The notes beneath the pieces are model-generated. The model did no database searches. It was given only the letters and a program-made list of their open reading frames with translations, and had not been told where the DNA came from. Shown in pieces: positions 625 through 12,026 of a stretch of 64,000 nt of DNA. Location of the stretch: positions 1 through 64,000 of the forward strand of contig NZ_JAUSUI010000003.1 of assembly GCF_030813495.1 (NCBI RefSeq). Direction: 5' to 3'. This stretch comes from Ancylobacter polymorphus (GTDB taxonomy: Bacteria; Pseudomonadota; Alphaproteobacteria; Rhizobiales; Xanthobacteraceae). The position numbers were made by a program, and so were the translations under genes. Each line of letters begins with the position of its first letter. The first letter of the stretch is position 1.

Positions 625-2616
625 TCACAGCTCCATGCCGTCGTTGGGAGTTAGGCTGACCTGTCGGGCCACGCCTTGCATCAGTCCGGTCATGCGCCGG
701 TTCCGGGCGGGGACGCCGTCCATCTCGTCGTCGCGATCCAGACCGAACTCGAACTCGTTCTCGATGGGCTGGCTTTTCTCGACCGGCTTGACGCGGCTGA
801 GCTCGGGCTGAAGCCGGTGCTCCGACCCGGTCAGATCCTCGTCTCGACCTTCGATGGCGGCACTCCCACCCTTACTCTCCTGAGGCCTGGGCAACGGCAG
901 CGTGGTCCAGTCATCGTGTTGGACGGTCGGGCCACGAGACCGCGTTGGCGGCGGCAAAAGCCGGTCCCGGAAGCGCGCATCCTCGTAGTAGCGCGCCTTC
1001 TTCGCCCGGATCGGCGCAGTGCCGGCGACCATGATGATCTCGTCCGTGGGCGGCAGCTGCATGACCTCGCCGGGGGTGAGCAGCGGGCGGGCGGTCTCCG
1101 AGCGCGACACCATGAGATGACCCAGCCACGGTGAGAGCCGGTGACCGGCGTAGTTCTTCATCGCCTTCATCTCAGTGGCGGTGCCGAGCGCATCGGAGAC
1201 GCGCTTGGCGGTGCGCTCATCGTTCGTGGCGAAGCTCACCCGGACATGGCAGTTGTCGAGGATCGAGTTGTTCGGACCATAGGCCTTCTCGATCTGGTTC
1301 AGCGACTGGGCGATGAGGAAGGCTTTCAGGCCATAGCCGGCCATGAAGGCGAGCGCGCTCTCGAAGAAGTCGAGCCGCCCCAGCGCCGGAAACTCGTCGA
1401 GCATGAGCAGCAGACGATGGCGTGCGCTCTTCGCCTGCAGGTCCTCGGTGAGGCGGCGGCCGATCTGGTTGAGGAGGAGGCGGATCAACGGCTTGGTGCG
1501 GTTGATGTCGGAGGGTGGCACCACGAGGTAGAGCGTGGTCGGCGTTTTTGCAGCGACGATATCCGCGATGCGCCAGTCGCAGTGCCGCGTCACCTCGGCA
1601 ATCACCGGATCTCGGTACAGGCCGAGGAAGGACATCGCGGTGGAGAGCACGCCCGAGCGCTCATTGTCGGATTTGTTCAGCAGCTCGCGGGCGGCGCTGG
1701 CGATGACGGGATGCGGGCCCGCCTTGCCGAGGTGGGCGGTCTTCATCATGGCGTCGAGCGTGGTCTCGATCGGCCGCTTCGGATCAGAAAGGAAGGCGGC
1801 GACGCCGGCGAGCGTCTTGTTGGTCTCAGCATAGAGCACGTGGAGGATAGCGCCGACCAGCAGCGCGTGGCTGGTCTTCTCCCAGTGGTTTCGCTTTTCC
1901 AGAGAGCCTTCGGGGTCCACCAGGATGTCGGCGATGTTCTGGACGTCGCGGACTTCCCATTCACCGCGGCGCACCTCCAGCAGTGGATTATAGGCGGCGG
2001 ACTTGACGTTGGTCGGATCGAACAGCAGCACGCGGCCATGTCGGGCCCGGAAGCCGGCGGTGAGCTGCCAGTTCTCGCCCTTGATGTCGTGGACGATGGC
2101 CGATCCCGGCCAGGTCAGCAGCGAGGGCACCACCAGGCCGACGCCCTTGCCGGAGCGGGTCGGCGCGAAGCACAGCACGTGCTCGGGCCCATCATGGCGC
2201 AGATAGTTCCGTTCATACCGACCGAGGACGACGCCATCGGTGCCGAGGAGCCCGGCAGCGCGGACTTCCTCCCTTTCGGCCCAGCGCGCCGAACCATAGG
2301 TGTCGACCCGGGAGGCCTCGCGCGCCCGCCAGACCGACAGCGCAATGGCGACCGCGATGGAGAGGAAGCCGCCGGAGGCGGCGATCAGCGCCCCCCGGAA
2401 GAACACCTCCGGCGCATAGGCATCGAAAAAGTACCACCACCAGAAGAAGGCCGGCGGGTAGTAGATCGGCAGGCCGAGAAGCGCGAACCACGGCGCGCCC
2501 AACTGTGCCTGAAAGCCGAGGCACCAGGCCACATATTGTGTGGCGCCCCAGATGGCAGCCAACACGATCAGCAGCACGGTGAGGATCTGCCCCCAGAGGA
2601 TTTTCGTCGCCGACAT
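625..2616 (-). CDS. traG: Conjugal transfer coupling protein TraG (VirD4/T4CP family)
   Basis: A 663-residue inner-membrane ATPase that links the relaxase-DNA complex to the type IV secretion channel. Hydrophobic segments near residues 8-35 and 75-95 are the N-terminal membrane anchors. The Walker A motif is FAPTRSGKGVGLVVPS (about 150-165) and the Walker B region is LLLMLDEFPALGR (about 400-412), followed by AQSLNQIEKAYG. Length is normal for TraG. It lies just downstream of the relaxase on the same strand, 21 bases away, and its stop touches the next gene, so relaxase, coupling protein and the copG-like gene form one transfer unit. Confidence 0.95.
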   Translation of the reverse strand: MSATKILWGQILTVLLIVLAAIWGATQYVAWCLGFQAQLGAPWFALLGLPIYYPPAFFWWWYFFDAYAPEVFFRGALIAASGGFLSIAVAIALSVWRAREASRVDTYGSARWAEREEVRAAGLLGTDGVVLGRYERNYLRHDGPEHVLCFAPTRSGKGVGLVVPSLLTWPGSAIVHDIKGENWQLTAGFRARHGRVLLFDPTNVKSAAYNPLLEVRRGEWEVRDVQNIADILVDPEGSLEKRNHWEKTSHALLVGAILHVLYAETNKTLAGVAAFLSDPKRPIETTLDAMMKTAHLGKAGPHPVIASAARELLNKSDNERSGVLSTAMSFLGLYRDPVIAEVTRHCDWRIADIVAAKTPTTLYLVVPPSDINRTKPLIRLLLNQIGRRLTEDLQAKSARHRLLLMLDEFPALGRLDFFESALAFMAGYGLKAFLIAQSLNQIEKAYGPNNSILDNCHVRVSFATNDERTAKRVSDALGTATEMKAMKNYAGHRLSPWLGHLMVSRSETARPLLTPGEVMQLPPTDEIIMVAGTAPIRAKKARYYEDARFRDRLLPPPTRSRGPTVQHDDWTTLPLPRPQESKGGSAAIEGRDEDLTGSEHRLQPELSRVKPVEKSQPIENEFEFGLDRDDEMDGVPARNRRMTGLMQGVARQVSLTPNDGMEL

Positions 2617-2637
2617 GGTGATGATCTTTCTCTCGGG

Positions 2638-4377
2638 TCAGAGGCCGAGGCCGCGCTTGCGACCGAAACTCCAGTCGACGCCACCATTGTCACGGGCGAC
2701 ACCGGAGACATGCTTGCCGAGCTGGCGCTCCAGAGAGGGTGACCAGGGCACGAGCTGGAAGCCGAGCCCGTCGTCGAGCATGGCGAAGCGGCCGGAGGCG
2801 AGGTTGAGGCGCTGGCGATACGTACCGGCGACATACTCGCCGCTACCGGCCTTGTTGAACGGCAGCCCGGTCTCGGCAGCGAGCTTCTCCCCCACGGCCT
2901 CCAGTTCCCGGCGGCGGAGCGTGTCGATGAGGTTGCGGGCGAAGACGACGCGCTGACCTTGTCGCTCGGCCAGCCCCTCGCGGACGAGATGCTCGGCGCG
3001 CCGGTCAAGTGCCTGGCTCACCTCCGCGCCGAAGCCGCCGTCCGACAGAGCGACGGGGTCACGCGCAATGGCCTGCCGGTCGAGCCAGGTGGCGCCGGTC
3101 GCCGTGACCTGATGGGCGAGATCGAGATCGGAGCGCACCGCGAGCGCGACACGCCGTTTACCGTGCGCATCATCGAAGGTTCGGAGCTCGACGATGGCGC
3201 CGGCCGCACCGTCACCAGCGGCATCGAGATCGGGCAGCCGGATGTGATGGGAACGCCCGTCCACGCCATCGACGATGGCAAAGGCGGAGCCGTGGAGTTC
3301 ATCATCGAGGCCGCGCGCGACCAGCCGGCCGATCACCGGTACGTCGAGGCTCTCGGCGGCGAGGACATAACTCGCCATACCGCGCTCGATGCCGCGTTCG
3401 GTGAGGGCGCGGTGCATGCGCTTGATGATGTCGCCGCGCTCCCCCAGCCCGCGCAGGGTGGCTTCCGCTTCCGGCTCCATCACCCATTGCGCGTTGCCGA
3501 TCTCGGTGGCGAGGCCGAGCGCCTCGAGCTTCCGGAGGCGCCCAATCTTCAGTGAATGGTGGTCATTCGGCTGTTGGCCGGGAGCCGGCGCCATGTCGAT
3601 GATGCCGCTCTCGCGGGTCTCGCGGAGAAGCTGGCGGTCGAGCTCGGTCCAGCGTTCAGCCTCGATCTGGCGTTCCAAACTCCGGCGGATATCGAGCTCG
3701 GTGCGGGGGCCGAGTTCTTGGGTGATCAGGTCACGGGCGCGATCGCGCATGCCCTCCTTGATGTAGTCGCGGGAGATCACGAGATCCTGGCCATCGTCGC
3801 GGCGGCCGCGCACGATCAGATGCACATGGGGATGCTCGGTGTTCCAGTGATCGACGGCGACCCAGTCGAGCCCGGTGCCGTGGTCCTTCTCCATCTGCCG
3901 GGTGAGGTCACGGGTGAAGGCCTGCAGGTCTTCCATCTCCAGGGCGTCGTCGGGCGAGACGATGAATCGGAAATGGTGACGGTCCTCGCGGCAGCGCTCA
4001 GCGAAGGCGTCGACATCCGCGCTGTCGCTCTCGGGACCGAACAGCCGCGCCTCCTCGCCATTGCGGGTCACCCCCTCGCGGCGAAGATAGGTGAGGTGCT
4101 GACTGAGGGAGCCCGCGCTGGCCGTGTGTCGGACGACGCGGGCCTTCACCACGGCGCCGCGTGAGCGTGGCGTGATCCGGCGGCTGGCCTGAAGGCTGGC
4201 GACCTGTCCGCTGCCGAAGCGCGAGCGGTTGCCGGTGGCGATCTTGGCCGAGCGAGAGACCCCGCCGCCGGCCTTCCGGGCCGCAGCGAGCGCCTGGGCG
4301 ACGAAGGGGCGGGCCTGCTGGGCGCGGGTCGAGCGGATGCGGCCGGGACGGACTCGGAACTCGCGGTCATCGCTCAT
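2638..4377 (-). CDS. rlxS: Relaxase/mobilization nuclease with DUF3363 domain (RlxS-like, MOBP)
   Basis: A 579-residue relaxase that nicks oriT and pilots the single strand during conjugation. The start is the ATG at 4377 (MSDDREFRVRPGRIRSTRAQQARPF), the usual N-terminus of this family; an upstream in-frame extension has no family support. Motif III, WNTEHPHVHLIVRG, carries the histidine triad for metal binding. The upstream HLTYLRREG is the part of the relaxase domain expected before it. The C-terminal half (about 290 onward) is the DUF3363 region. It matches RlxS of Mesorhizobium ICEs in neighbours and layout. A hairpin cluster with an IncP-like nic consensus lies directly upstream. Confidence 0.9.
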   Translation of the reverse strand: MSDDREFRVRPGRIRSTRAQQARPFVAQALAAARKAGGGVSRSAKIATGNRSRFGSGQVASLQASRRITPRSRGAVVKARVVRHTASAGSLSQHLTYLRREGVTRNGEEARLFGPESDSADVDAFAERCREDRHHFRFIVSPDDALEMEDLQAFTRDLTRQMEKDHGTGLDWVAVDHWNTEHPHVHLIVRGRRDDGQDLVISRDYIKEGMRDRARDLITQELGPRTELDIRRSLERQIEAERWTELDRQLLRETRESGIIDMAPAPGQQPNDHHSLKIGRLRKLEALGLATEIGNAQWVMEPEAEATLRGLGERGDIIKRMHRALTERGIERGMASYVLAAESLDVPVIGRLVARGLDDELHGSAFAIVDGVDGRSHHIRLPDLDAAGDGAAGAIVELRTFDDAHGKRRVALAVRSDLDLAHQVTATGATWLDRQAIARDPVALSDGGFGAEVSQALDRRAEHLVREGLAERQGQRVVFARNLIDTLRRRELEAVGEKLAAETGLPFNKAGSGEYVAGTYRQRLNLASGRFAMLDDGLGFQLVPWSPSLERQLGKHVSGVARDNGGVDWSFGRKRGLGL

Positions 4378-4387
4378 GGCGAAGCCT

Positions 4388-4532
4388 CGCAATGTGCGGA
4401 AAATCGTTGATGCGGTGCCATTTGCGGCACGCGCAAACCTTGTGGTTCGGCTCCACAAGGTGCCGAAGGCACAGGAAAGACGTGCAGAAACAACACCCCG
4501 ACCGCAGCGCAATGTGCGCCCTTTTATCCTGC
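4388..4532. other. Candidate origin of transfer (oriT) upstream of the relaxase
   Basis: The region holds several hairpins. These are GTGCC/GGCAC at 4415-4430, ACCTTGTGG/CCACAAGGT at 4437-4461, GTGCC-GAA-GGCAC at 4460-4472 and GCGCA-ATG-TGCGC at 4507-4519. The 11-mer CGCAATGTGCG occurs twice (4388-4398, 4508-4518). Six bases after the last hairpin is TATCCTGC (4525-4532), a perfect match to the IncP/RP4-type nic consensus YATCCTG|Y, which puts the nick after 4531 on the plus strand. Transfer from there would bring the tra genes in last. The assignment is an inference from structure, consensus and position. Confidence 0.55.
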
Positions 4533-4559
4533 CCTCCTAATCGGTCGCACTTTTGGTGA

Positions 4560-6200
4560 TCTTCCTGCCATCGTCGTTTCTCCATGAATCTGCGAAGATA
4601 TACGAAACTGTTCTCTACAGCGCGCCTGCGCCGCCTGGCCGTGAGTTCCGATGCGCCGTGCACTCCTCCGCGCTCATCGACGGGAGATTCCAGCTGCCCA
4701 TGAGCAGCGTCCGAACCGTCGCGGCGCAATTTCCCATCGGTCTGACGGAGCATCATCACAGGCACTCGGGCGCGGTCCGGCCGTCTTGCGATCGGCGCGG
4801 CCGCAGGCAAGATAGCGTGCGTTCCGTCGTGGATGGTCTGCATCGGTCCTCATCCGCCGGGGCGGATCTCCATGTTCAGGCCGCGTCGGTCGTCCTGCGG
4901 CCGCGCTGCGTTTGCTGTGTCGTTGGACGGGTCATGCGTGCGCTCCCAGAAGCTTGCGGCCCTTGACCTGCGCGCGCCGTTCGGTCGCGGTCTCACTCGC
5001 CGCCGGGTCGCCGACATAGAAGGTTCCGTCGCTCCACATGGCGTGCATGATGACGGCGAGCTTGCGCGCAACCGCCACCACCGCTTTGCGGTGGCAGGAG
5101 CGTTTGGCGATCTGCTGCCCCCAGCTTTTGACCTTGTCCGTGCCCTTGAACCGGGTCAGCAAACCGGACGCCGCCTCGTAGAGCGCGCTGCGCACATCGG
5201 CATCGCCGGCTTTCGAGATCCGCCCCTGAACGTCGATCGACGTGCCGGACTGCCAGCGTTTCGATGTCAGCCCGAAGTAAGCCGCAACGTCGCGCGAACG
5301 GCGGAACCGTGTCGGATCATCGATCGCCGTCATGAACGACAAGGCCGTCACCGGCCCGACGCCGGGGATTGCCAGGAAGCGTCGGCACAGCTCGGTGCGC
5401 GCCACGATCTTCACGACGAGATCGTGCAAGCGGCCATACTGCTTCCACAGCGCGGCGCGGGCCGTCAGCATGGCGTCCATCAGCTCGCTCGACAGCGGAT
5501 CATGCGCCACCGCCTCACGCACCGCCTGATCGAAAGCGCCTCGCGATGTGGCGCCGAGCTTGATGCCGAAACTCTTCAGCGAATGACGGATCGCGTTCTC
5601 CAGATCGAGAAATTTGCGTTTGAGATTGCGCCGGTGCGTCAGTAACAGGCGCATCCGGTAGCAATCTTCCGTCTTCACATGTGCGGCCCGGAACCAGCCG
5701 GTGCGCATGATGTGCGCGATGCCGAGCGCGTCCATTTCGTCGGTCTTGTTGCGCTGCGCCGCCATCGCGGCGCGCACATGCTGCGTCTCCAGACAGATCA
5801 CCGGCAGGCCGAGCTTGGCGAGTTCGGGATGCAGCCAGGGCGACAGTGAACCTGCTTCGTGGCCAACGCGTCGCAGCCGCGCCGCGAAAGGTTTCAGCAC
5901 TGCGAACAGTGCCTCCGGCTCGGTCGCCACTTTGACCGTCAGATGCACGTCGCCGCGATCGTCAACGACGCACACCGCCGTCTCGTCAATTGCGACATCC
6001 AGCCCGCAAAAATACTCCATCAGCCGCCTCCTGCGTGGTTTGACGGCCACGACAGTATCAGCGCTGGAAACCGCGGCTGTCGGACCAGGTGCGGCCTGCC
6101 GATTACGGGCGGCACTCGTGCGGTCGTCGTCTCTGTCATGCGCCTCCCGGCCCTCCATGGAGCGCCGGAACCCGCCAGAATGCGAAAGCCGGTCGGCGTG
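4560..6200 (-). mobile_element. IS110-family insertion sequence (ends approximate)
   Basis: A complete IS110-type transposase gene (4932-6020) sits between the lytic transglycosylase gene and the oriT/relaxase region, which are normally close neighbours. IS110 elements have no classical terminal inverted repeats, so I cannot fix the ends. The limits given are the outer bounds set by the flanking ICE features. The 4546-4931 stretch downstream of the gene has no credible ORF. It includes a hairpin ATCCGCC-GG-GGCGGAT (4852-4867). The 6021-6201 stretch upstream is where the family usually encodes its guide (bridge) RNA. Confidence 0.6.
4932..6020 (-). CDS. IS110-family transposase (DEDD recombinase)
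   Basis: A 362-residue protein starting at the ATG at 6020 (MEYFCGLDVAIDETAVCVVDD). The frame stays open far upstream, but the family begins at the GLDV motif. The N-terminal DEDD RuvC-like domain shows D in GLDVAIDE, E in GHEAGSLSPWL and DEMDALGIAHIM. The C-terminal Transposase_20 domain shows LAIPGVGPVTALSFMTAIDD and the Ser-containing YFGLTSKRWQSGTS. All expected motifs are present and the frame is intact, so the enzyme is probably functional. It separates the parA-to-LT operon from oriT and the relaxase gene. Confidence 0.92.
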   Translation of the reverse strand: MEYFCGLDVAIDETAVCVVDDRGDVHLTVKVATEPEALFAVLKPFAARLRRVGHEAGSLSPWLHPELAKLGLPVICLETQHVRAAMAAQRNKTDEMDALGIAHIMRTGWFRAAHVKTEDCYRMRLLLTHRRNLKRKFLDLENAIRHSLKSFGIKLGATSRGAFDQAVREAVAHDPLSSELMDAMLTARAALWKQYGRLHDLVVKIVARTELCRRFLAIPGVGPVTALSFMTAIDDPTRFRRSRDVAAYFGLTSKRWQSGTSIDVQGRISKAGDADVRSALYEAASGLLTRFKGTDKVKSWGQQIAKRSCHRKAVVAVARKLAVIMHAMWSDGTFYVGDPAASETATERRAQVKGRKLLGAHA

Positions 6201-6201
6201 G

Positions 6202-6864
6202 TCATGGAGCCCTCCGCGATGGCAAAGGTGCAACGAAGAGCGTGCTCGATCGCGGGGTGAGGAGCGCCGCATCGGTGGGATTGCTGCGCGCAGTCTGTGC
6301 GGCGAACAGCGGCGCCTTGCGCCAGCTTTGCGCCGTTGGCCGCACCAATTCCGTAGCGCCGGCTGCAGACTCTTTGTCGATGATCGGCGCCAACGCTGCG
6401 ATGTAAGTGCGCGTCTCCTGCGGCAGCGGCGTGCCGGCAAGCGACGCCTCATAGCGCGCCGGCCCGGCATTGTAGGCCGCGAGCATGGCGCGGGTGCTGC
6501 CATAGCGGTCATGGAGCTGGCGCAGATGGGCAGCGCCGGCGAGGATGTTGTCGCGCGGGTCGAACGGATCGGCGCCGAGACCGTGATGGACGCGAAGCTC
6601 GTCCCAGGTCGCGGGCATGATCTGCATCAGCCCCATGGCACCGGCATGCGAGACGGCGCGCGGATCGCCGCCGCTCTCGGCCCGCAGGACGGCTCGGATC
6701 CAGACGGCTGGAAGCTCAAAGCGCTGCGCAGCCTCGTCGATAAAGTCGGCGTAGGAGGTGACAGCATTCGCCAAGGTCGGCGACATGGTCTGCGCGGCGG
6801 CAGAGCCGGGCGAGGCGCCGCCGATCAGCAGTCCGGATGCGAGAAAGAGCACAGCGCGATGCAT
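6202..6864 (-). CDS. Lytic transglycosylase of the conjugation machinery
   Basis: A 220-residue periplasmic enzyme that opens peptidoglycan for assembly of the mating channel. The start at 6864 (MHRAVLFLASGLLIGGASPGSAAAQ) gives a clear signal peptide and sits one base after the traF stop. The SLT domain shows the catalytic glutamate in RAESGGDP, then AGAMGLMQIMPATWDELR and AYNAGPARYE. It is the last gene of the coupled parA-RHH-DUF2840-traF-LT series. An equivalent gene follows traF in Mesorhizobium ICEs. The IS110 insertion begins shortly after its stop. Confidence 0.92.
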   Translation of the reverse strand: MHRAVLFLASGLLIGGASPGSAAAQTMSPTLANAVTSYADFIDEAAQRFELPAVWIRAVLRAESGGDPRAVSHAGAMGLMQIMPATWDELRVHHGLGADPFDPRDNILAGAAHLRQLHDRYGSTRAMLAAYNAGPARYEASLAGTPLPQETRTYIAALAPIIDKESAAGATELVRPTAQSWRKAPLFAAQTARSNPTDAALLTPRSSTLFVAPLPSRRAP

Positions 6865-6865
6865 G

Positions 6866-7411
6866 TCAGCGCACCGCCGCGCGCCAGACGAAGTCACTGT
6901 TGCCGGCTTCATCCGTGAGGAGTGGCATCGCACGACCGATGACGGTCCCGTCTGAGATCGGCCCGAAGTAGCGCCCGTCGAGACTGTCGCCGACGTTCGG
7001 GTTCATCAGGAACACTTCGCCAGCCGCGATACGCCGGCAGCCCTGCCAGACCGGCAGATCGCGGCCCATGCGGTCGCGCGGCAGCGCTTCGCCAAGCGGT
7101 ACGCCATCGACGGTGATGGCGTTGCCGAGGCGGCAGACTTCCTGTCCCGGGAGCCCCATCACACGCTTCAGCAGCGGCGTGCCTTCGCCGATATAGCCAC
7201 GCGCGATGAGGAACGCGGCGAGCGGCGGCGGCTGCATCACCGCGACCAGATCGGTGATCTCGAGATGATCCGCCGGCTCGACCGAGTAGAGCCCGACAGG
7301 AACGCTCGCCGAGACATTCCAGATCAGCTTCAGCGGCGTCGGCAGCGTGGCGGCGTAGGCCATGCCGACGCTGGCGGCCGCAGCCATCAGCACATAGGCG
7401 GCGCGGTTCAT
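6866..7411 (-). CDS. traF: TraF-type S26 signal peptidase
   Basis: A 181-residue membrane peptidase; in IncP-like systems TraF cyclises or matures the pilin TrbC. The ATG at 7411 overlaps the preceding stop by the ATGA arrangement and gives an N-terminal hydrophobic segment (AAYVLMAAAASVGMAYAA). The nucleophile Ser is in SASVPVGLYSV and the general-base Lys in LLKRVMGLPGQEV. The C-terminal box GDSLDGRYFGPI is the usual last S26 motif. It is translationally coupled to DUF2840 upstream and to the lytic transglycosylase downstream. Confidence 0.93.
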   Translation of the reverse strand: MNRAAYVLMAAAASVGMAYAATLPTPLKLIWNVSASVPVGLYSVEPADHLEITDLVAVMQPPPLAAFLIARGYIGEGTPLLKRVMGLPGQEVCRLGNAITVDGVPLGEALPRDRMGRDLPVWQGCRRIAAGEVFLMNPNVGDSLDGRYFGPISDGTVIGRAMPLLTDEAGNSDFVWRAAVR

Positions 7412-7929
7412 TGACCGCACTCCCGCCGCTTCAGCCACGCCTGATGGCGCTCTATCGTGTAGGCGCGCGGCTCGAAGCCGACGCTGACGCGGTGCGCGAC
7501 ATGCCCCCAGTGGTCAGGAGCGACGGTCGCCGCATCGATGCCGATCGCTTCGATAGCGTCGATGTGCTGAAGGATTTTCTCGACCTTCGGCCAGCCATCG
7601 ACCCGCAGCAGGATCTCGCCGCCGGGGCGCACGAAGGGCAGCGTCTGGTAGCCGTCGCCCGGTGCCACGCAGCGCACGATGTCGAGGCGGGAGGCCACGG
7701 TGCCGAAGTCGTTCGACGCCCACCGGACAAAGGCGAAGATGGAGCCGGGAGGGAAAGACAGGATGCGCCGGCGGCGATCCAATAGCTGCTCATTTGCGTG
7801 ATGGCCGAAGCGAATCCAGTTCTCGATGCGCTTCTCGATATGGGTCAGCTCGACATGGGTCAGGGCATCGGATGGGGGACTGGACGCGGAAGCCGTGCTG
7901 GCCGCACTGGGCGCAAACGCCGCGCTCAT
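7408..7929 (-). CDS. DUF2840 domain protein of the ICE transfer operon
   Basis: A 173-residue protein matching DUF2840, a family found almost only in Rhizobiales conjugative elements between parA and traF. The N-terminal 25 residues are Ser/Ala-rich and low complexity. The conserved core runs from LTHVELTHIEKRIENWIRFG to YTIERHQAWLKRRECGQ. No catalytic motif is visible. It overlaps the genes on both sides by ATGA, so it is produced together with the Par proteins and TraF. Its biochemical role is unknown. Confidence 0.85.
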   Translation of the reverse strand: MSAAFAPSAASTASASSPPSDALTHVELTHIEKRIENWIRFGHHANEQLLDRRRRILSFPPGSIFAFVRWASNDFGTVASRLDIVRCVAPGDGYQTLPFVRPGGEILLRVDGWPKVEKILQHIDAIEAIGIDAATVAPDHWGHVAHRVSVGFEPRAYTIERHQAWLKRRECGQ

Positions 7930-8177
7930 GGCAGATCTCCAGACTGGGGAGGGAATTCACGCGCGAGGAGGTCGCGCAGCATCTCGGCGACGGTGACGCC
8001 GCGCCGGAAGGCGGCGACCTTGATCCGCCCGCGCAGTTCGGGCGTCACATCGATGGTGAGGCGCGCGGTGAACGTGGCGCCGGGGCGGTGCTCTGGCGCG
8101 ACATTCGCCGCCTTGATCCAGTGCTCGGGATCGGCAGGTCGGGAGGCAAAGTCGCGGCGGATCGGGCGCTCGCTCAT
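7926..8177 (-). CDS. Small ribbon-helix-helix partition-type protein
   Basis: An 83-residue protein from the ATG at 8177 (MSERPIRRDFASRPADPEHWIKAA). The C-terminal half (FTARLTIDVTPELRGRIKVAAFRRGVTVAEMLRDLLAREF) has the RHH fold used by the small DNA-binding partners of ParA. The start overlaps the parA stop (ATGA) and the stop overlaps the DUF2840 start. A role as centromere-binding partner or repressor of the parA operon is likely from this position. The family is not the classical ParB. Confidence 0.82.
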   Translation of the reverse strand: MSERPIRRDFASRPADPEHWIKAANVAPEHRPGATFTARLTIDVTPELRGRIKVAAFRRGVTVAEMLRDLLAREFPPQSGDLP

Positions 8178-8827
8178 GGCGCGAGCCTCCCGAGGTCGAG
8201 ACAATTGATCTCGGCGGCGAGCGCAGCGATCTCGCGCGTGGCCGGCCCTGCATCGTCGCGCTCGAAGACGAGACGTCCGGATTGCGCGGCCGCCGCAAAG
8301 GCGATGCGCTGTCCGACGGTGCTGGCGAGCACCGGGGGATCGTGGTCGGCCAGCGTCCGCGCCGTCTCGCGGGCGAGAACCGTGCGCGCGCCGCAGCGGT
8401 TCAGGACGAACCGGACCAGCATCTCCGGGCGGTAGATCCGCGCCTCGCGGATCAGCGCCAGCATCTCGGCCGAGGCCCATCCATCGAATGGCGAGGGCTG
8501 CACCGGGATCAGCACCAGATCGGCGGCGAGCAGCGCCGATCGCATCAGCCCGGCGACGCGGGGTGGTCCATCGATGACGATGTGATCCGTGTCACGCGCG
8601 AGTTCGGGCGCCTCCCGGTGCAGCGTATCGCGGGCGAGGCCGACGACACCGAACAGCCGCGGCAGTACCTCGCGACTGCGCTGCTGCGACCAGTCGAGGC
8701 TGGAGCCCTGCGGATCGGCGTCGATCAGGGTGATCCGCTGTCCTTGCCGGGCCCATTGCCCAGCGAGATGCAGCGCCAGGGTGGTCTTGCCGACCCCGCC
8801 TTTCTGGTTGAGGAGCGCGACGATCAT
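8174..8827 (-). CDS. parA: ParA-family partition ATPase
   Basis: A 217-residue ATPase of the small ParA/MinD type. The deviant Walker A motif KGGVGKTT is at residues 9-16 (LNQKGGVGKTTLALHLAGQWA). The Walker A' region is LIDADPQGSS and the Walker B region HIVIDGPPRVAGLMRSAL. It heads the operon parA-RHH-DUF2840-traF-LT. It is separated from the replication initiator gene by about 210 bases carrying iteron-like repeats. It probably stabilises the excised circular form of the ICE, as par genes do in replicating ICEs. Confidence 0.93.
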   Translation of the reverse strand: MIVALLNQKGGVGKTTLALHLAGQWARQGQRITLIDADPQGSSLDWSQQRSREVLPRLFGVVGLARDTLHREAPELARDTDHIVIDGPPRVAGLMRSALLAADLVLIPVQPSPFDGWASAEMLALIREARIYRPEMLVRFVLNRCGARTVLARETARTLADHDPPVLASTVGQRIAFAAAAQSGRLVFERDDAGPATREIAALAAEINCLDLGRLAP

Positions 8828-8967
8828 GGCGCGCTCCGCACGTTCAGCGGCGACACACGCGTCGTAGTAGAATGGCGTAGTTCCGTTAGAAGGATTCCGA
8901 AGGAATCCGGGTTAGAGAAGTTACGGACGCCGGAAGCCTCTGATTCAGAAGACTGAATCGTCGATTC

Positions 8968-9033
8968 TGGTCCCCGATAGCACGAGGATCCGGTCCCTGA
9001 TGGCACGAGGGTACTGGTCCCCGATAGCACGAG
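8968..9033. repeat. Three iteron-like direct repeats between parA and the replication initiator gene
   Basis: The 19-mer TGGTCCCCGATAGCACGAG occurs at 8968-8986 and again, identical, at 9015-9033. A variant with three changes lies between them at 8991-9009. The start-to-start spacing is 23 and 24 bases, about two helical turns. Repeats of this kind beside an initiator gene are the usual binding sites in an iteron origin, so this is a candidate oriV or an autoregulatory site. It lies immediately 3' of the initiator gene. Confidence 0.7.
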
Positions 9034-9038
9034 ATGAT

Positions 9039-9926
9039 TCACAGCTTGTCCCCAGATCGGATGGCCGCGAGACGGCGGCGGGTTGGCAGGGCAAGGCGTG
9101 CAGCGTCGATCTCGGCGAAGGAGAGGATGTCAGCAGCGTCCGTCTGGCGGCGCATGCCGAGCTGGTAGCCGGGCAGCGCCTGGCGGCCGACGATCGCGCG
9201 TAGGTCATAGGCGAAGTGCTTGAGGGGCGAGAGGCTGCCGGATTTGGCGTGGAGGTGAGCGACGTCGAAGCTCCAGCCGTGGTCCTGGTGCCCGCCATGC
9301 TTGCGCACGAGGCGGTAGAGCCAGCGTTCCAGCCCGCCCGTCAGCCCGAAATAGGTGCGGTCGATGGTGAGCACGAGCGCGTCGTCGAGCACGGCGCGGT
9401 AGAACCAGTCCGGCAGGATGAGGTCGACGCCGTCGGGCCGGCCGTTGCGGTCGGTGCGCTCCTGCCATTCATTGATCCAGGAGAAGCGGTGCCGGCGCCC
9501 CTCCGCGGGCTGGCGGATGGTGGTCGAGACCGTCGTGGATTGGAGGCGGTCGAGCGCGGCCTTGAGGCGCTGATAGTCGCGCAGGGAGGTGCCGCGCCCG
9601 ACAAAGGTGAGGATCTCATAGGGCGTCGCGGCCATCAGGCGTGAGGTTCGCAGCCCCGCGTCGCGCGCCTCGACGATCTGGCTGGCGGCCCAGATGAGAA
9701 TGTCGGCATCCCAGATGGTCGCCATGCCGTGGTCGGGCACGGCCTCGACCCGGATGGCGATGCTCCCGGTCCGGAAATCGATCGGCGCCACGCGATGGGT
9801 CTTGGAGAGGGAGAAGAAGGGATAGGCCATGAGATCCTGCGCATCTCTTGGCGCGAAGTCGCCCGGCAAGGCGCGGAACTGATCGAGCTGTCCGCGCTCC
9901 GAGAGGCTGTGATGCCGCGCCGCCAT
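9039..9926 (-). CDS. repA: Replication initiator protein (RepA-type, RPA family)
   Basis: A 295-residue protein resembling the plasmid replication initiator A family found on Rhizobiales ICEs and plasmids. Recognisable blocks are FFSLSKTHRVAPIDFRTGSIAIRVEA, ATPYEILTFVGRGTSLRDYQRLKAALDRLQSTTV (winged-helix part) and LTIDRTYFGLTGGLERWLYRLVRKHGG. It starts at an ATG at 9926, just after the excisionase-like gene, and ends at the iteron-like repeats. Initiator plus iterons plus ParA suggest that the excised element can replicate. Confidence 0.85.
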   Translation of the reverse strand: MAARHHSLSERGQLDQFRALPGDFAPRDAQDLMAYPFFSLSKTHRVAPIDFRTGSIAIRVEAVPDHGMATIWDADILIWAASQIVEARDAGLRTSRLMAATPYEILTFVGRGTSLRDYQRLKAALDRLQSTTVSTTIRQPAEGRRHRFSWINEWQERTDRNGRPDGVDLILPDWFYRAVLDDALVLTIDRTYFGLTGGLERWLYRLVRKHGGHQDHGWSFDVAHLHAKSGSLSPLKHFAYDLRAIVGRQALPGYQLGMRRQTDAADILSFAEIDAARLALPTRRRLAAIRSGDKL

Positions 9927-9934
9927 GGGAGCGT

Positions 9935-10216
9935 TCAGCGTGCGGCGCGGCCGGCGAACGAACCGGCGGCAAGCGCGTGGCGCTTGGCCGGCAGGACGGT
10001 GCCGCGCGGATCGGATGTCGAGGTGACCGCGCCGCGCTCGGTCCAGGCCTGCAGGTCGTCGATGGAATAGACGACGCGTCCGCCGAGCTTGCGATAGGCG
10101 GGACCGGTGCCATAGGTGCGGTGCTTCTCAAGCGTGCGGGCCGACAGGCTGAGAAATTCGGCGGCTTCCTTGGTGCGCAGGTAGCGCGGCGGGAGGGTGG
10201 CGAGATCGGGTCGCAT
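9935..10216 (-). CDS. rdfS: Helix-turn-helix excisionase-like protein (RdfS-like)
   Basis: A 93-residue protein from the ATG at 10216, chosen because GGAGG lies just upstream. A longer in-frame N-terminus is possible. PPRYLRTKEAAEFLSLSARTLEKHRTYGTGPAYRKLGGRVVYSIDDLQAW is a MerR/excisionase-type winged HTH. In ICEMlSymR7A the recombination directionality factor RdfS has this fold and is switched on by FseA; here an fseA-like gene lies immediately upstream on the same strand. RdfS bends attachment-site DNA so that the integrase excises the element. The assignment rests on fold and neighbourhood. Confidence 0.7.
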   Translation of the reverse strand: MRPDLATLPPRYLRTKEAAEFLSLSARTLEKHRTYGTGPAYRKLGGRVVYSIDDLQAWTERGAVTSTSDPRGTVLPAKRHALAAGSFAGRAAR

Positions 10217-10337
10217 GGAGCGGGCCTCCGTGGGCGTGGCGGGAGCCGCCGGAGTGCGGCGGCGGACGGTGACCACGGTGGCGGAGGAGGAATGTCGGGA
10301 GGGATGGGGAAGATTGGGGGACTATATTTCCCACCCC

Positions 10338-10920
10338 CTAGCGGGGCGAGGTGCAGCGGCGGCGTCTATGCAACAGCTTGCGATAGTCGCCCGCGACCAT
10401 TCGGCTCGCATCCTCGACAAGCGCGATGACCGTGTCGCGCAGGGAGGACGTCTTCCAGGGCGCTGCTGCGACACGAACGGCACCGAAGAGTCCGGTGGCA
10501 ATCTCACGATAGGTCGCACCCGCGCGCCGAGCGTCCTCTGCCTGAAGCATGTGGCGCAGGCGTTGACGCTGCTGGAGCGTGATCCTCCGATCCGGCGGCA
10601 TGGACGCAGTCCGCATATGGGCAGACAGCCGCAGCAGAGCCTCGATCCGATCTGGGAGGTGTGCGTCCATTAGCACGAGAGCACAAAGGGATGGATCGAG
10701 GCGACGGCCTTCTGGCAGCATAACGGTAATCGCGTCCCGGCCCGCACCGATGATCGCACAAACAGATGCGTGCTGGTGATGTTCCCTGCCTTGAGGTGTA
10801 TTACCAGCGTTCGGAGGGCCATAGGCAGTGTCGCTTGGCGCGACAAGTGAGATCAGGCCGGGGTCGGTTTCCAGGTCCCAGATGACGGAAGCGTCTCGGG
10901 CATCACATGTGGGGTCAATC
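10338..10920 (-). CDS. fseA: DUF2285 protein, C-terminal half of an FseA-type activator
   Basis: The frame continues the DUF6499 product after a +1 shift at 10918-10926 and reads IDPTCDARDASVIWDLETDPGLISLVAPSD onward. Near its end, DRRITLQQRQRLRHMLQAEDARRAGATYREIATGLFG contains a DNA-binding HTH of the DUF2285 type. It has no good start codon of its own near the junction. In Mesorhizobium ICEs msi172 and msi171 encode these same two domains, and the activator FseA is made only when ribosomes shift frame. FseA then activates the excisionase gene, which lies just downstream here. Confidence 0.78.
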
Positions 10921-10926
10921 GGGAAA
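10915..10926 (-). promoter_or_regulatory. Probable +1 programmed ribosomal frameshift site (TTT CCC GAT TGA)
   Basis: The DUF6499 frame reads TTT CCC GAT TGA (minus strand 10926 to 10915) and stops. If the CCC-decoding tRNA slips one base onto CCG, the next codons are ATT GAC CCC. These join the DUF2285 frame at exactly the point where fused homologues continue (LRFP-x-DP). The position agrees with the known +1 shift in FseA of ICEMlSymR7A. A simple indel mutation would leave the same pattern, so expression data are needed to tell them apart. Confidence 0.65.
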
Positions 10927-11118
10927 TCGCAGACCCCAGCGGGCTCGCATGAGCGCCGCGAGGGTCTCCTCATCGGCTCCGTCGGCCGCACAGAGTTTGG
11001 CAAAGTCTTGCCGATACGCCTTGTTACGCCGAAGCCATTCCCAGGCAAACTGTGCAGGCGAGAGAGTATCTACGAAGGCGTAAGCCTCTGATGACTGCCA
11101 GGCCGATTGCAGGACCAT
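10915..11118 (-). CDS. DUF6499 protein, N-terminal half of an FseA-type activator
   Basis: A 67-residue product (MVLQSAWQSSEAYAFVDTLSPAQFAWEWLRRNKAYRQDFAKL...). The block AYAFVDTLSPAQFAWEWLRRNKAYRQDF is the hallmark of DUF6499. It ends at TGA 10917-10915, exactly where the DUF2285 domain of fused homologues begins. Alone it would correspond to Msi172 of the Mesorhizobium island. With a +1 shift it becomes the N-terminus of FseA. It lies 108 bases downstream of the qseM-like gene on the same strand. Confidence 0.78.
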   Translation of the reverse strand: MVLQSAWQSSEAYAFVDTLSPAQFAWEWLRRNKAYRQDFAKLCAADGADEETLAALMRARWGLRFPD

Positions 11119-11225: not shown

Positions 11226-11486
11226 TCACTTGTCGGGTCGACGCAGGAGTTGCTGATATCCCTCTGCCGACATCCAGCGCGCTCGGGCCAGATGGGCCGC
11301 GTGGACACGCCGGGCGTGTTCCGGCGCGGTGAGCGGATCCAGGCTGAACAGCAGCGCGACAACTTCCTTCCAGTCGGCGCCCGCCGCTTCGGCATCGAGC
11401 AGCCGCAGATAGAGCGCGGCATGACTGCGATCGTAGTCGGTGACGGTCGGCGCATCGGGCGGCGCGTCGCGAAAGGCTCGGGTCAT
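11226..11486 (-). CDS. qseM: QseM-like antiactivator
   Basis: An 86-residue acidic protein (DYDRSHAALYLRLLDAEAAGADWKEVVALLFSLDPLTAPEHARRVHAAHLARARWMSAEGYQQLL). The DUF2285-like helical pattern and the position, upstream of fseA and divergent from an XRE gene, match QseM of Mesorhizobium ICEs. QseM binds and blocks both TraR and FseA, keeping the element integrated in most cells. The 264-base gap to the divergent XRE gene holds two operator-like sites. The function is by analogy, since sequence similarity in this family is low. Confidence 0.65.
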   Translation of the reverse strand: MTRAFRDAPPDAPTVTDYDRSHAALYLRLLDAEAAGADWKEVVALLFSLDPLTAPEHARRVHAAHLARARWMSAEGYQQLLRRPDK

Positions 11487-11720: not shown

Positions 11721-11750
11721 TGATTGCGGAAATCCGCGACCGCTTGCGCC

Positions 11751-12026
11751 ATGGACATGCGCAAGCTGGTCGGCCGCAATCTCGCGCGCCTGCGTCAGGC
11801 TCAGGAGCTGACGCAGGAGGAGCTTGCCATGCGTTCGGGGTTCAGCCAGCAATATCTGTCCGACGTTGAGCGCGGCCTCAAAAATCCGACGATCATCACA
11901 CTGTACGAGATCGCGCTGGCCCTGAGCGTGAGCCATGTGGCGCTTGTCGAGCCGGACGGCATGGCGAACGAGATGGCGCCACAGCCCAAGCGAAGGCGCG
12001 CCGCAGGCGCGAGCCGGATCAAGTGA
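11751..12026 (+). CDS. qseC: XRE-family regulator, QseC-like
   Basis: A 91-residue protein from the ATG at 11751 (MDMRKLVGRNLARLRQAQELTQEELAMRSGFSQQYLSDVERGLKNPTIITLYEIALAL). The HTH_3 domain occupies residues 5-65. The tail is Arg/Lys-rich (KRRRAAGASRIK). It is divergent from the qseM-like gene, as in ICEMlSymR7A, where QseC is the switch that sets whether qseM is on. A paralogue with about three-quarters DNA identity by eye lies at 24751-24969, on the other side of the metabolic cargo. Confidence 0.8.
   Translation: MDMRKLVGRNLARLRQAQELTQEELAMRSGFSQQYLSDVERGLKNPTIITLYEIALALSVSHVALVEPDGMANEMAPQPKRRRAAGASRIK

What the first reader, a model, noticed from the sequence alone, without database searches (positions are those of the whole stretch)
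10338..11118. Split FseA-type activator joined by a probable +1 programmed frameshift
The DUF6499 and DUF2285 halves lie in different frames and meet at TTT CCC GAT TGA. Slipping one base at CCC gives LRFP-IDP, the continuation seen in one-piece homologues. FseA of ICEMlSymR7A is made this way, so the layout points to a translational limit on excision. The exact retention of the junction, with both halves otherwise intact, argues against decay.
Basis: partly seen in the sequence, partly recalled or inferred. Interest (0 to 1): 0.8.

Follow-up and report, generated by a model that had tools for sequence, protein, structure and literature searches.

The report
Frameshifted ICE excision activator, UUU shift
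A soil bacterium's mobile element probably makes the protein that triggers its own excision only when the ribosome skips one base at a conserved UUU codon; this switch is already known from related elements, and this copy is a well-preserved new example.

Summary
On the minus strand a DUF6499 (PF20109) half and a DUF2285 (PF10074) half lie in 0 and +1 frames and meet at CGA TTT CCC GAT TGA (TTT = 10924-10926). The genome is an Ancylobacter. Relatives keep the two-frame design, and the C half is under purifying selection in its +1 frame (dN/dS 0.18-0.24, five comparisons). A programmed +1 shift making an FseA-type activator is therefore the best reading. It is a published mechanism (PMC10359603: about 61% of 4709 FseA homologues).

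The slip is not tied to CCC: in 125 dereplicated two-frame genes the shared core is UUU_Y (122 of 125), while CCC follows in only 74. A review already names UUU as the shift site. The TGA beside the junction is private to this copy: five sampled relatives have CGA there and stop four codons later. The gene sits in a qseM-fseA-rdfS cluster with a candidate FseA box.

What the comparison may add: GGG and CGA just before the site are strongly over-used in two-frame genes but not in one-piece homologues, whereas the Trp-Gly pair is kept in both.

The parts
10915..11118 (-). 0-frame ORF, N half of FseA: DUF6499 / PF20109 Trans_reg_dom, 67 aa, motif AWEWLRRN (Msi172-like)
   Evidence: PF20109 77.3 bits
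10921..10938 (-). +1 frameshift signal TGG GGT CTG CGA TTT CCC; slip codon TTT = 10924-10926, CGA = 10927-10929
   Evidence: conservation in 125 homologues
10915..10917 (-). TGA stop of the 0 frame, second codon after CCC; private to this copy (CGA in five sampled Ancylobacter relatives)
10338..10923 (-). +1-frame C half of FseA: middle domain and DUF2285 / PF10074 RovC_DNA-bd, stop included (Msi171-like)
   Evidence: 110.4 bits; purifying selection
10305..10333 (-). candidate FseA box TGGGAA-N17-TCCCCA just after fseA, before rdfS
   Evidence: box letters inferred here from these loci, not read from the paper's figure
9935..10216 (-). rdfS-like recombination directionality factor (HTH_17); ATG at 10216, alternative GTG at 10276
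   Evidence: PF12728 39.8 bits on 9938-10276; sequence
11226..11486 (-). QseM-like lone DUF2285 protein, 86 aa, directly upstream of fseA
   Evidence: PF10074 35.7 bits, cut-off 26.4
11724..12026 (+). XRE-type HTH_3 regulator divergent from the qseM-like gene (QseC-like role inferred)
   Evidence: PF01381 55.2 bits
625..9926 (-). conjugation/maintenance genes downstream: RepA, ParA, DUF2840, S26 peptidase (TraF-like), transglycosylase, [IS110 insertion], relaxase with DUF3363, TraG coupling protein
   Evidence: same genes apart from the IS in two single-contig same-genus genomes

Best explanation
[quoted passage not shown] Most ribosomes translate only the short DUF6499 protein. A minority slip +1 when peptidyl-tRNA-Phe sits on UUU (10924-10926): it re-pairs to the overlapping UUC, and translation continues in the +1 frame (CCG AUU GAC...), giving one polypeptide ...WGLRFPIDP... 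with the DUF2285 DNA-binding domain. Inferred from R7A: this protein binds an inverted repeat in front of rdfS, switches on rdfS and the transfer genes and so starts excision, and is held back by the QseM-like protein encoded just upstream. Shown here: the two frames, their conservation and selection, the UUU_Y core and the gene order. Inferred: that shifting happens, its low rate, and the functions.
For: Domains in two frames. 156 of 195 profile hits have the +1 relation. UUU in 122 of 125 dereplicated sites against 27% UUU among 678 other Phe codons of the same genes, always followed by C or T; the bias holds in GC3-rich genes (75 of 78 at GC3 0.7-0.8, 11 of 11 above 0.8). C half dN/dS 0.18-0.24 against five relatives. 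The joined reading aligns without a gap across the junction in 15 proteins and weakly matches RovC, E 0.02. 53 of 123 homologues have no start codon in the +1 frame up to 30 nt past the slip, 16 none up to 90 nt. QseM-like hit upstream in 89 of 111 and an RdfS-like motif downstream in 92 of 124 (the motif is found on the reverse strand in 0 of 124 and in 8 of 2480 shuffles). Mechanism demonstrated for R7A as reported in PMC10359603 (passages), with UUU as shift site in PMC5009743 (passages).
Against: No expression data. 70 of the 123 homologues do have a start codon in the +1 frame by 30 nt past the slip, among them this one. Six loci keep both halves but have UGU instead of UUU (L028, L029, L067, L074, L080, L027), which UUU_Y re-pairing does not explain. 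This copy lacks the GGG-UUR of the commonest signal. No quorum-sensing gene or integrase appeared among the 20 ORFs scanned with Pfam, so the R7A regulatory circuit is not shown to be complete here.
Confidence: 0.87

Rival explanations
1. The slip occurs at CCC (P-site tRNA-Pro moving from CCC to CCG).
For: CCC is the commonest next codon, 74 of 125, and is kept in the five sampled Ancylobacter relatives; CCC_UGA is a known +1 site elsewhere (PMC5009743 passages). Product identical.
Against: 51 of 125 two-frame genes have no CCC there, while UUU_Y is kept in 122. The review names UUU as the shift site of the R7A element.
Confidence: 0.07
2. No shift: the C half is made separately from its own start and the two halves meet as two proteins.
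For: The window has TTG, TTG, GTG and ATG codons in the open +1 frame upstream of the slip; the ATG at 10973 has GGAG before it, and the GTG 65-68 nt before the slip is shared by five of six Ancylobacter genes. PMC9601964 argues for separate start and stop codons in Azorhizobium (passage).
Against: L025 (A. amanitiformis) has no start codon in its +1 frame from its opening to 120 nt past the slip, and the window's ATG is absent from the other five. Across the family 53 of 123 have none up to 30 nt past the slip and 16 none up to 90 nt. Separate starts would not explain the UUU, CGA and GGG bias.
Confidence: 0.06
3. A decaying or mis-sequenced gene with an accidental frameshift.
For: The own genome's second copy (contig C9, L002/L004) has a stop in its +1 frame 184 nt after the slip, so decay of such genes may occur.
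Against: Same two frames in five Ancylobacter relatives and in 156 of 195 hits; purifying selection on the C half in its +1 frame; neighbours conserved in two single-contig same-genus genomes.
Confidence: 0.02

Closest known systems
FseA (msi172-msi171) of ICEMlSymR7A, Mesorhizobium japonicum
   Same: DUF6499 + DUF2285 in two frames joined by +1 PRF; QseM-type lone DUF2285 protein and RdfS as partners; traF and rlxS-type genes linked
   Different: Here fseA lies directly between a qseM-like gene and rdfS; no traI/traR-type gene among the ORFs scanned; RepA/ParA/DUF2840 genes lie between rdfS and the peptidase; GGT CTG CGA before UUU
Family-wide conserved +1 PRF site of FseA homologues (PMC10359603, passages and section 18 seen; 4709 homologues, ~61% two-frame)
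   Same: Same domain split and shift
   Different: A codon-level description of the signal (GGG, CGA, UUU_Y) is not in the passages seen; the 2015 PNAS paper that describes the site could not be read
One-piece FseA/RovC-type homologues (L131, L132, L134, L136, L251-L253 and others)
   Same: WGLR..EDP segment where the junction would be, both domains
   Different: Single frame; mostly GGC and CGC codons, no UUU in the slip position of the WGLR..EDP set
UUU_Y +1 sites such as yopN-tyeA and influenza PA-X (PMC5009743 passages)
   Same: +1 slip at UUU followed by pyrimidine
   Different: Unrelated genes; different upstream codon

Membership tests
FseA-type activators | N-terminal DUF6499 with AWEFLRRN-like motif | tested here: met
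   AWEWLRRN; PF20109 77.3 bits
FseA-type activators | C-terminal DUF2285 domain | tested here: met
   PF10074 110.4 bits
FseA-type activators | halves joined by +1 PRF at a conserved UUU site (in the two-frame majority) | tested here: inconclusive
   Site sequence and frames present and conserved; the shift itself was not measured
FseA-type activators | activates rdfS through an inverted-repeat FseA box | tested here: inconclusive
   TGGGAA-N17-TCCCCA at 10305-10333. TGGGRA-N15..18-TCCCCA within 200 nt after the C-half stop in 12 of 124 loci, several of them related, against 0 of 6200 mononucleotide shuffles; the pattern was chosen after seeing the Ancylobacter loci. One match in the window; 6 of 100 dinucleotide shuffles of the 64 kb had at least one
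FseA-type activators | inhibited by a QseM antiactivator | not testable with these tools
   A QseM-like ORF is adjacent (35.7 bits); binding not tested
ICE of the ICEMlSymR7A conjugation type | rdfS, traF, rlxS, traG genes linked | tested here: met
   Pfam matches HTH_17, Peptidase_S26, DUF3363/Relaxase, T4SS-DNA_transf in 625-10276
ICE of the ICEMlSymR7A conjugation type | integrase and trb operon on the same element | tested here: inconclusive
   Contig ends 0.6 kb past traG. VirB4-type matches of the own genome lie on other contigs, C9 and C10. G010 has one about 8 kb past traG; G009 has no PF03135 match

The most novel reading that the evidence does not exclude
The FseA shift signal is an extended mRNA-level signal, UGG-GGG-UUR-CGA-UUU-Y, rather than a nascent Trp-Gly peptide effect. 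CGA in the E site (weak wobble pairing; recalled) and a G-run upstream raise slipping at UUU_Y, while Trp-Gly is kept for protein folding, since one-piece homologues that need no shift keep it too. Elements would then tune excision frequency by synonymous changes in a few codons; this Ancylobacter lineage (GGU-CUG-CGA) would be a lower-output version.
Probability: 0.45. Interest if true: 0.45.

Novelty: new member of a known kind. Interest (0 to 1): 0.27.

Why it matters
It adds a free-living Ancylobacter element to a published translational brake on ICE excision. It also turns the question of what makes this site slip into a few codon swaps: UUU, CGA and GGG are over-used in two-frame genes only, whereas Trp-Gly, which has been suggested to influence the shift, is conserved in one-frame genes as well.

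Tried and rejected
Slip at CCC: rejected on conservation. Stop codon as part of the signal: rejected, since the 0-frame stop lies 3 to 212 codons after the slip codon (125 loci). Transcriptional slippage: no long homopolymer run at the site. 3' RNA structure: none found, z +0.80 for the 96 nt from 10935 to 10840. A hairpin just 5' of the site has z -2.36 (101 nt, 5 of 200 shuffles as stable) but ends a few bases before UUU, inside the ribosome's footprint, so I give it no role. UUR as a frameshift-specific codon: rejected, 83 of 125 two-frame against 14 of 22 one-frame, Fisher p 0.81. Viral contigs: no relatives by tblastn. NCBIfam: no match at E 0.001 for the two fseA halves or the QseM-like protein; its rdfS query was out of frame by my error and does not count. 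The rdfS queries were also out of frame and are not used. Stretches of contigs C9, C10 and C12 of the own genome were looked at for the rest of the element; eight window proteins (one of them the out-of-frame rdfS) had no tblastn match on them.

Full report
What is there. The +1 frame carries DUF2285 (PF10074, 110.4 bits) down to 10341, stop at 10338-10340. The frames meet at TGG GGT CTG CGA TTT CCC GAT TGA.

Relatives. PF20109 was sought in 101 relatives, 297 genomes of the order, 398 of the phylum and 250 of another order of the phylum; the sets overlap (31, 61, 42 and 19 genomes matched). The C half was sought in 30 genomes of the genus (15 matched). Not every matched place was fetched. Domain profiles built here were run over the fetched loci. 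After exact duplicates and two Brucella loci were dropped, 195 N-domain hits remained: 156 with the C domain in +1, 28 in the same frame, 1 in +2, 10 with no C domain found. At, before the last search, there were 175 hits (156 +1, 13 same frame, 1 +2, 5 none). 154 of the 156 had a mappable slip codon (148 TTT, 6 TGT), and these fell to 125 after removing sites over 90% identical across 170 nt.

The slip site. In these 125 the slip codon is TTT in 122 and TGT in 3. The next base is C in 119 and T in 6, never A or G. The next codon is CCC in 74, CGC in 38 and others in 13. Elsewhere in the same genes TTT is 27% of 678 Phe codons. UUU_Y is exactly what tRNA-Phe needs to re-pair one base forward, and a slip there gives the same protein as a slip at CCC. 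The 0-frame stop lies 3 to 212 codons after the slip codon and is not part of the signal. The TGA next to the junction is private to this copy among six Ancylobacter genes compared.

Codons before the site. GGG is used in 95 of 118 Gly codons at -3 (12.6% of other Gly codons in these genes), UUR in 83 of 125 codons at -2 (11.8% of other Leu codons), CGA in 91 of 100 Arg codons at -1 (9.8% of other Arg codons). One-frame homologues are a control: 22 of 28 keep Trp-Gly; among these GGG is used in 3 of 22, CGA in 0 of 15 Arg codons (14 CGC, 1 CGT), UUR in 14 of 22. Fisher p is 3e-9 for GGG and 5e-13 for CGA, but 0.81 for UUR, so UUR is not specific to shifting. Sequences are related, so these p values overstate the evidence; the one-frame set is also more distant and mostly from another class. 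Trp-Gly conservation without shifting weakens it as evidence for a nascent-peptide stimulator, while the GGG and CGA bias points to an mRNA- or tRNA-level effect. The pattern TGGGGNYTRCGATTTY occurs at 41 places in 34 of 249 genomes; the same pattern read backwards occurs at 3. Compared by eye, 24 of the 25 places of the form TGGGGGTTRCGATTTC fall in PF20109 matches, and one (G275) lies about 100 nt beyond a partial match.

Selection. Against five Ancylobacter relatives the C half has dN/dS 0.18-0.24 and the N half 0.43-0.67, with lower dS in the N half (0.10-0.30 against 0.32-0.56). In the last 14 codons up to the slip, 1 of 13 invariant residues shows a synonymous change, against 69 of 133 in the C half (Fisher p 0.0025). 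This fits extra constraint on the RNA just before the site, though n is small.

Independent start. In the open +1 frame upstream of the slip this copy has TTG, TTG, GTG and a private ATG (10973), and five of six Ancylobacter genes share a GTG 65-68 nt before the slip; the sixth, L025, has no start codon up to 120 nt past the slip. Of 123 homologues with an uninterrupted +1 frame, 70 have a start codon by 30 nt past the slip, 53 do not, and 16 have none up to 90 nt; 2 of 125 have an interrupted +1 frame, one being the own genome's second copy on C9. Separate translation is therefore unlikely as the general mode, but this copy's own sequence does not exclude it.

Neighbourhood. Upstream lies a QseM-like lone DUF2285 ORF (11226-11486) and a divergent HTH_3 gene; downstream a candidate box (10305-10333) and an rdfS-like HTH_17 gene. 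A DUF2285 hit lies within 600 nt upstream in 89 of 111 two-frame loci, and an RdfS-like motif within 450 nt downstream in 92 of 124; the same motif is found on the reverse strand in 0 of 124 and in 8 of 2480 shuffles. RepA, ParA, DUF2840, S26 peptidase, transglycosylase, relaxase (DUF3363) and TraG follow. In G009, one contig, the order from the LysR and HTH_3 genes through qseM and fseA to TraG is the same; in G010, one contig, the stretch fetched shows the order from fseA to TraG (the rdfS query was out of frame and is not counted). The window ends 0.6 kb past traG, so integrase and trb genes of this copy were not found; G010 has a VirB4-type gene about 8 kb past traG, G009 has no PF03135 match.

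Known or new. The passages seen of PMC10359603 (section 18) state that FseA is made by +1 PRF, that the site is found in alpha, beta and gamma proteobacteria, and that about 61% of 4709 homologues are two-frame. PMC5882170, PMC11963761 and PMC8627217 (passages) describe the same activator. This is a new member of a known kind. I did not see the GGG/CGA bias or the one-frame control in print, but searched only, and the key 2015 paper is not held.

Open point. Six loci have UGU instead of UUU (L028, L029, L067, L074, L080, and separately L027) with both domains present. Five of them form a group found in five genomes. They do not fit UUU_Y re-pairing; how they are expressed is unexplained.

Noticed in passing
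window 4932-6512: An IS110-family transposase ORF lies between the transglycosylase gene and the relaxase gene; in G009 (L283) those genes are only about 110 bp apart. The insertion may separate relaxase and traG expression from the rdfS operon in this copy.
   Followed up: partly
L002/L004 (G000:C9:103501-104248): The same genome holds a second fseA-type gene with the canonical TGG GGG TTA CGA TTT CCC site, but its +1 frame has a stop 184 nt after the slip.
   Followed up: partly
L028, L029, L067, L074, L080 (and L027): Two-frame fseA genes with UGU in place of the otherwise near-invariant UUU; both domains present, shift mechanism unexplained.
   Followed up: partly
window 10924-10965: Synonymous changes are nearly absent in the last 14 codons up to the slip among six Ancylobacter genes, and a 101-nt stretch ending just before the slip folds with z -2.36.
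   Followed up: partly
L112/L128 (G268:C74): An fseA homologue whose 0 frame stays open for 325 aa while the DUF2285 domain is found in the +1 frame; it too has TTT CGC after TGG GGT GTT CTG.
   Followed up: partly
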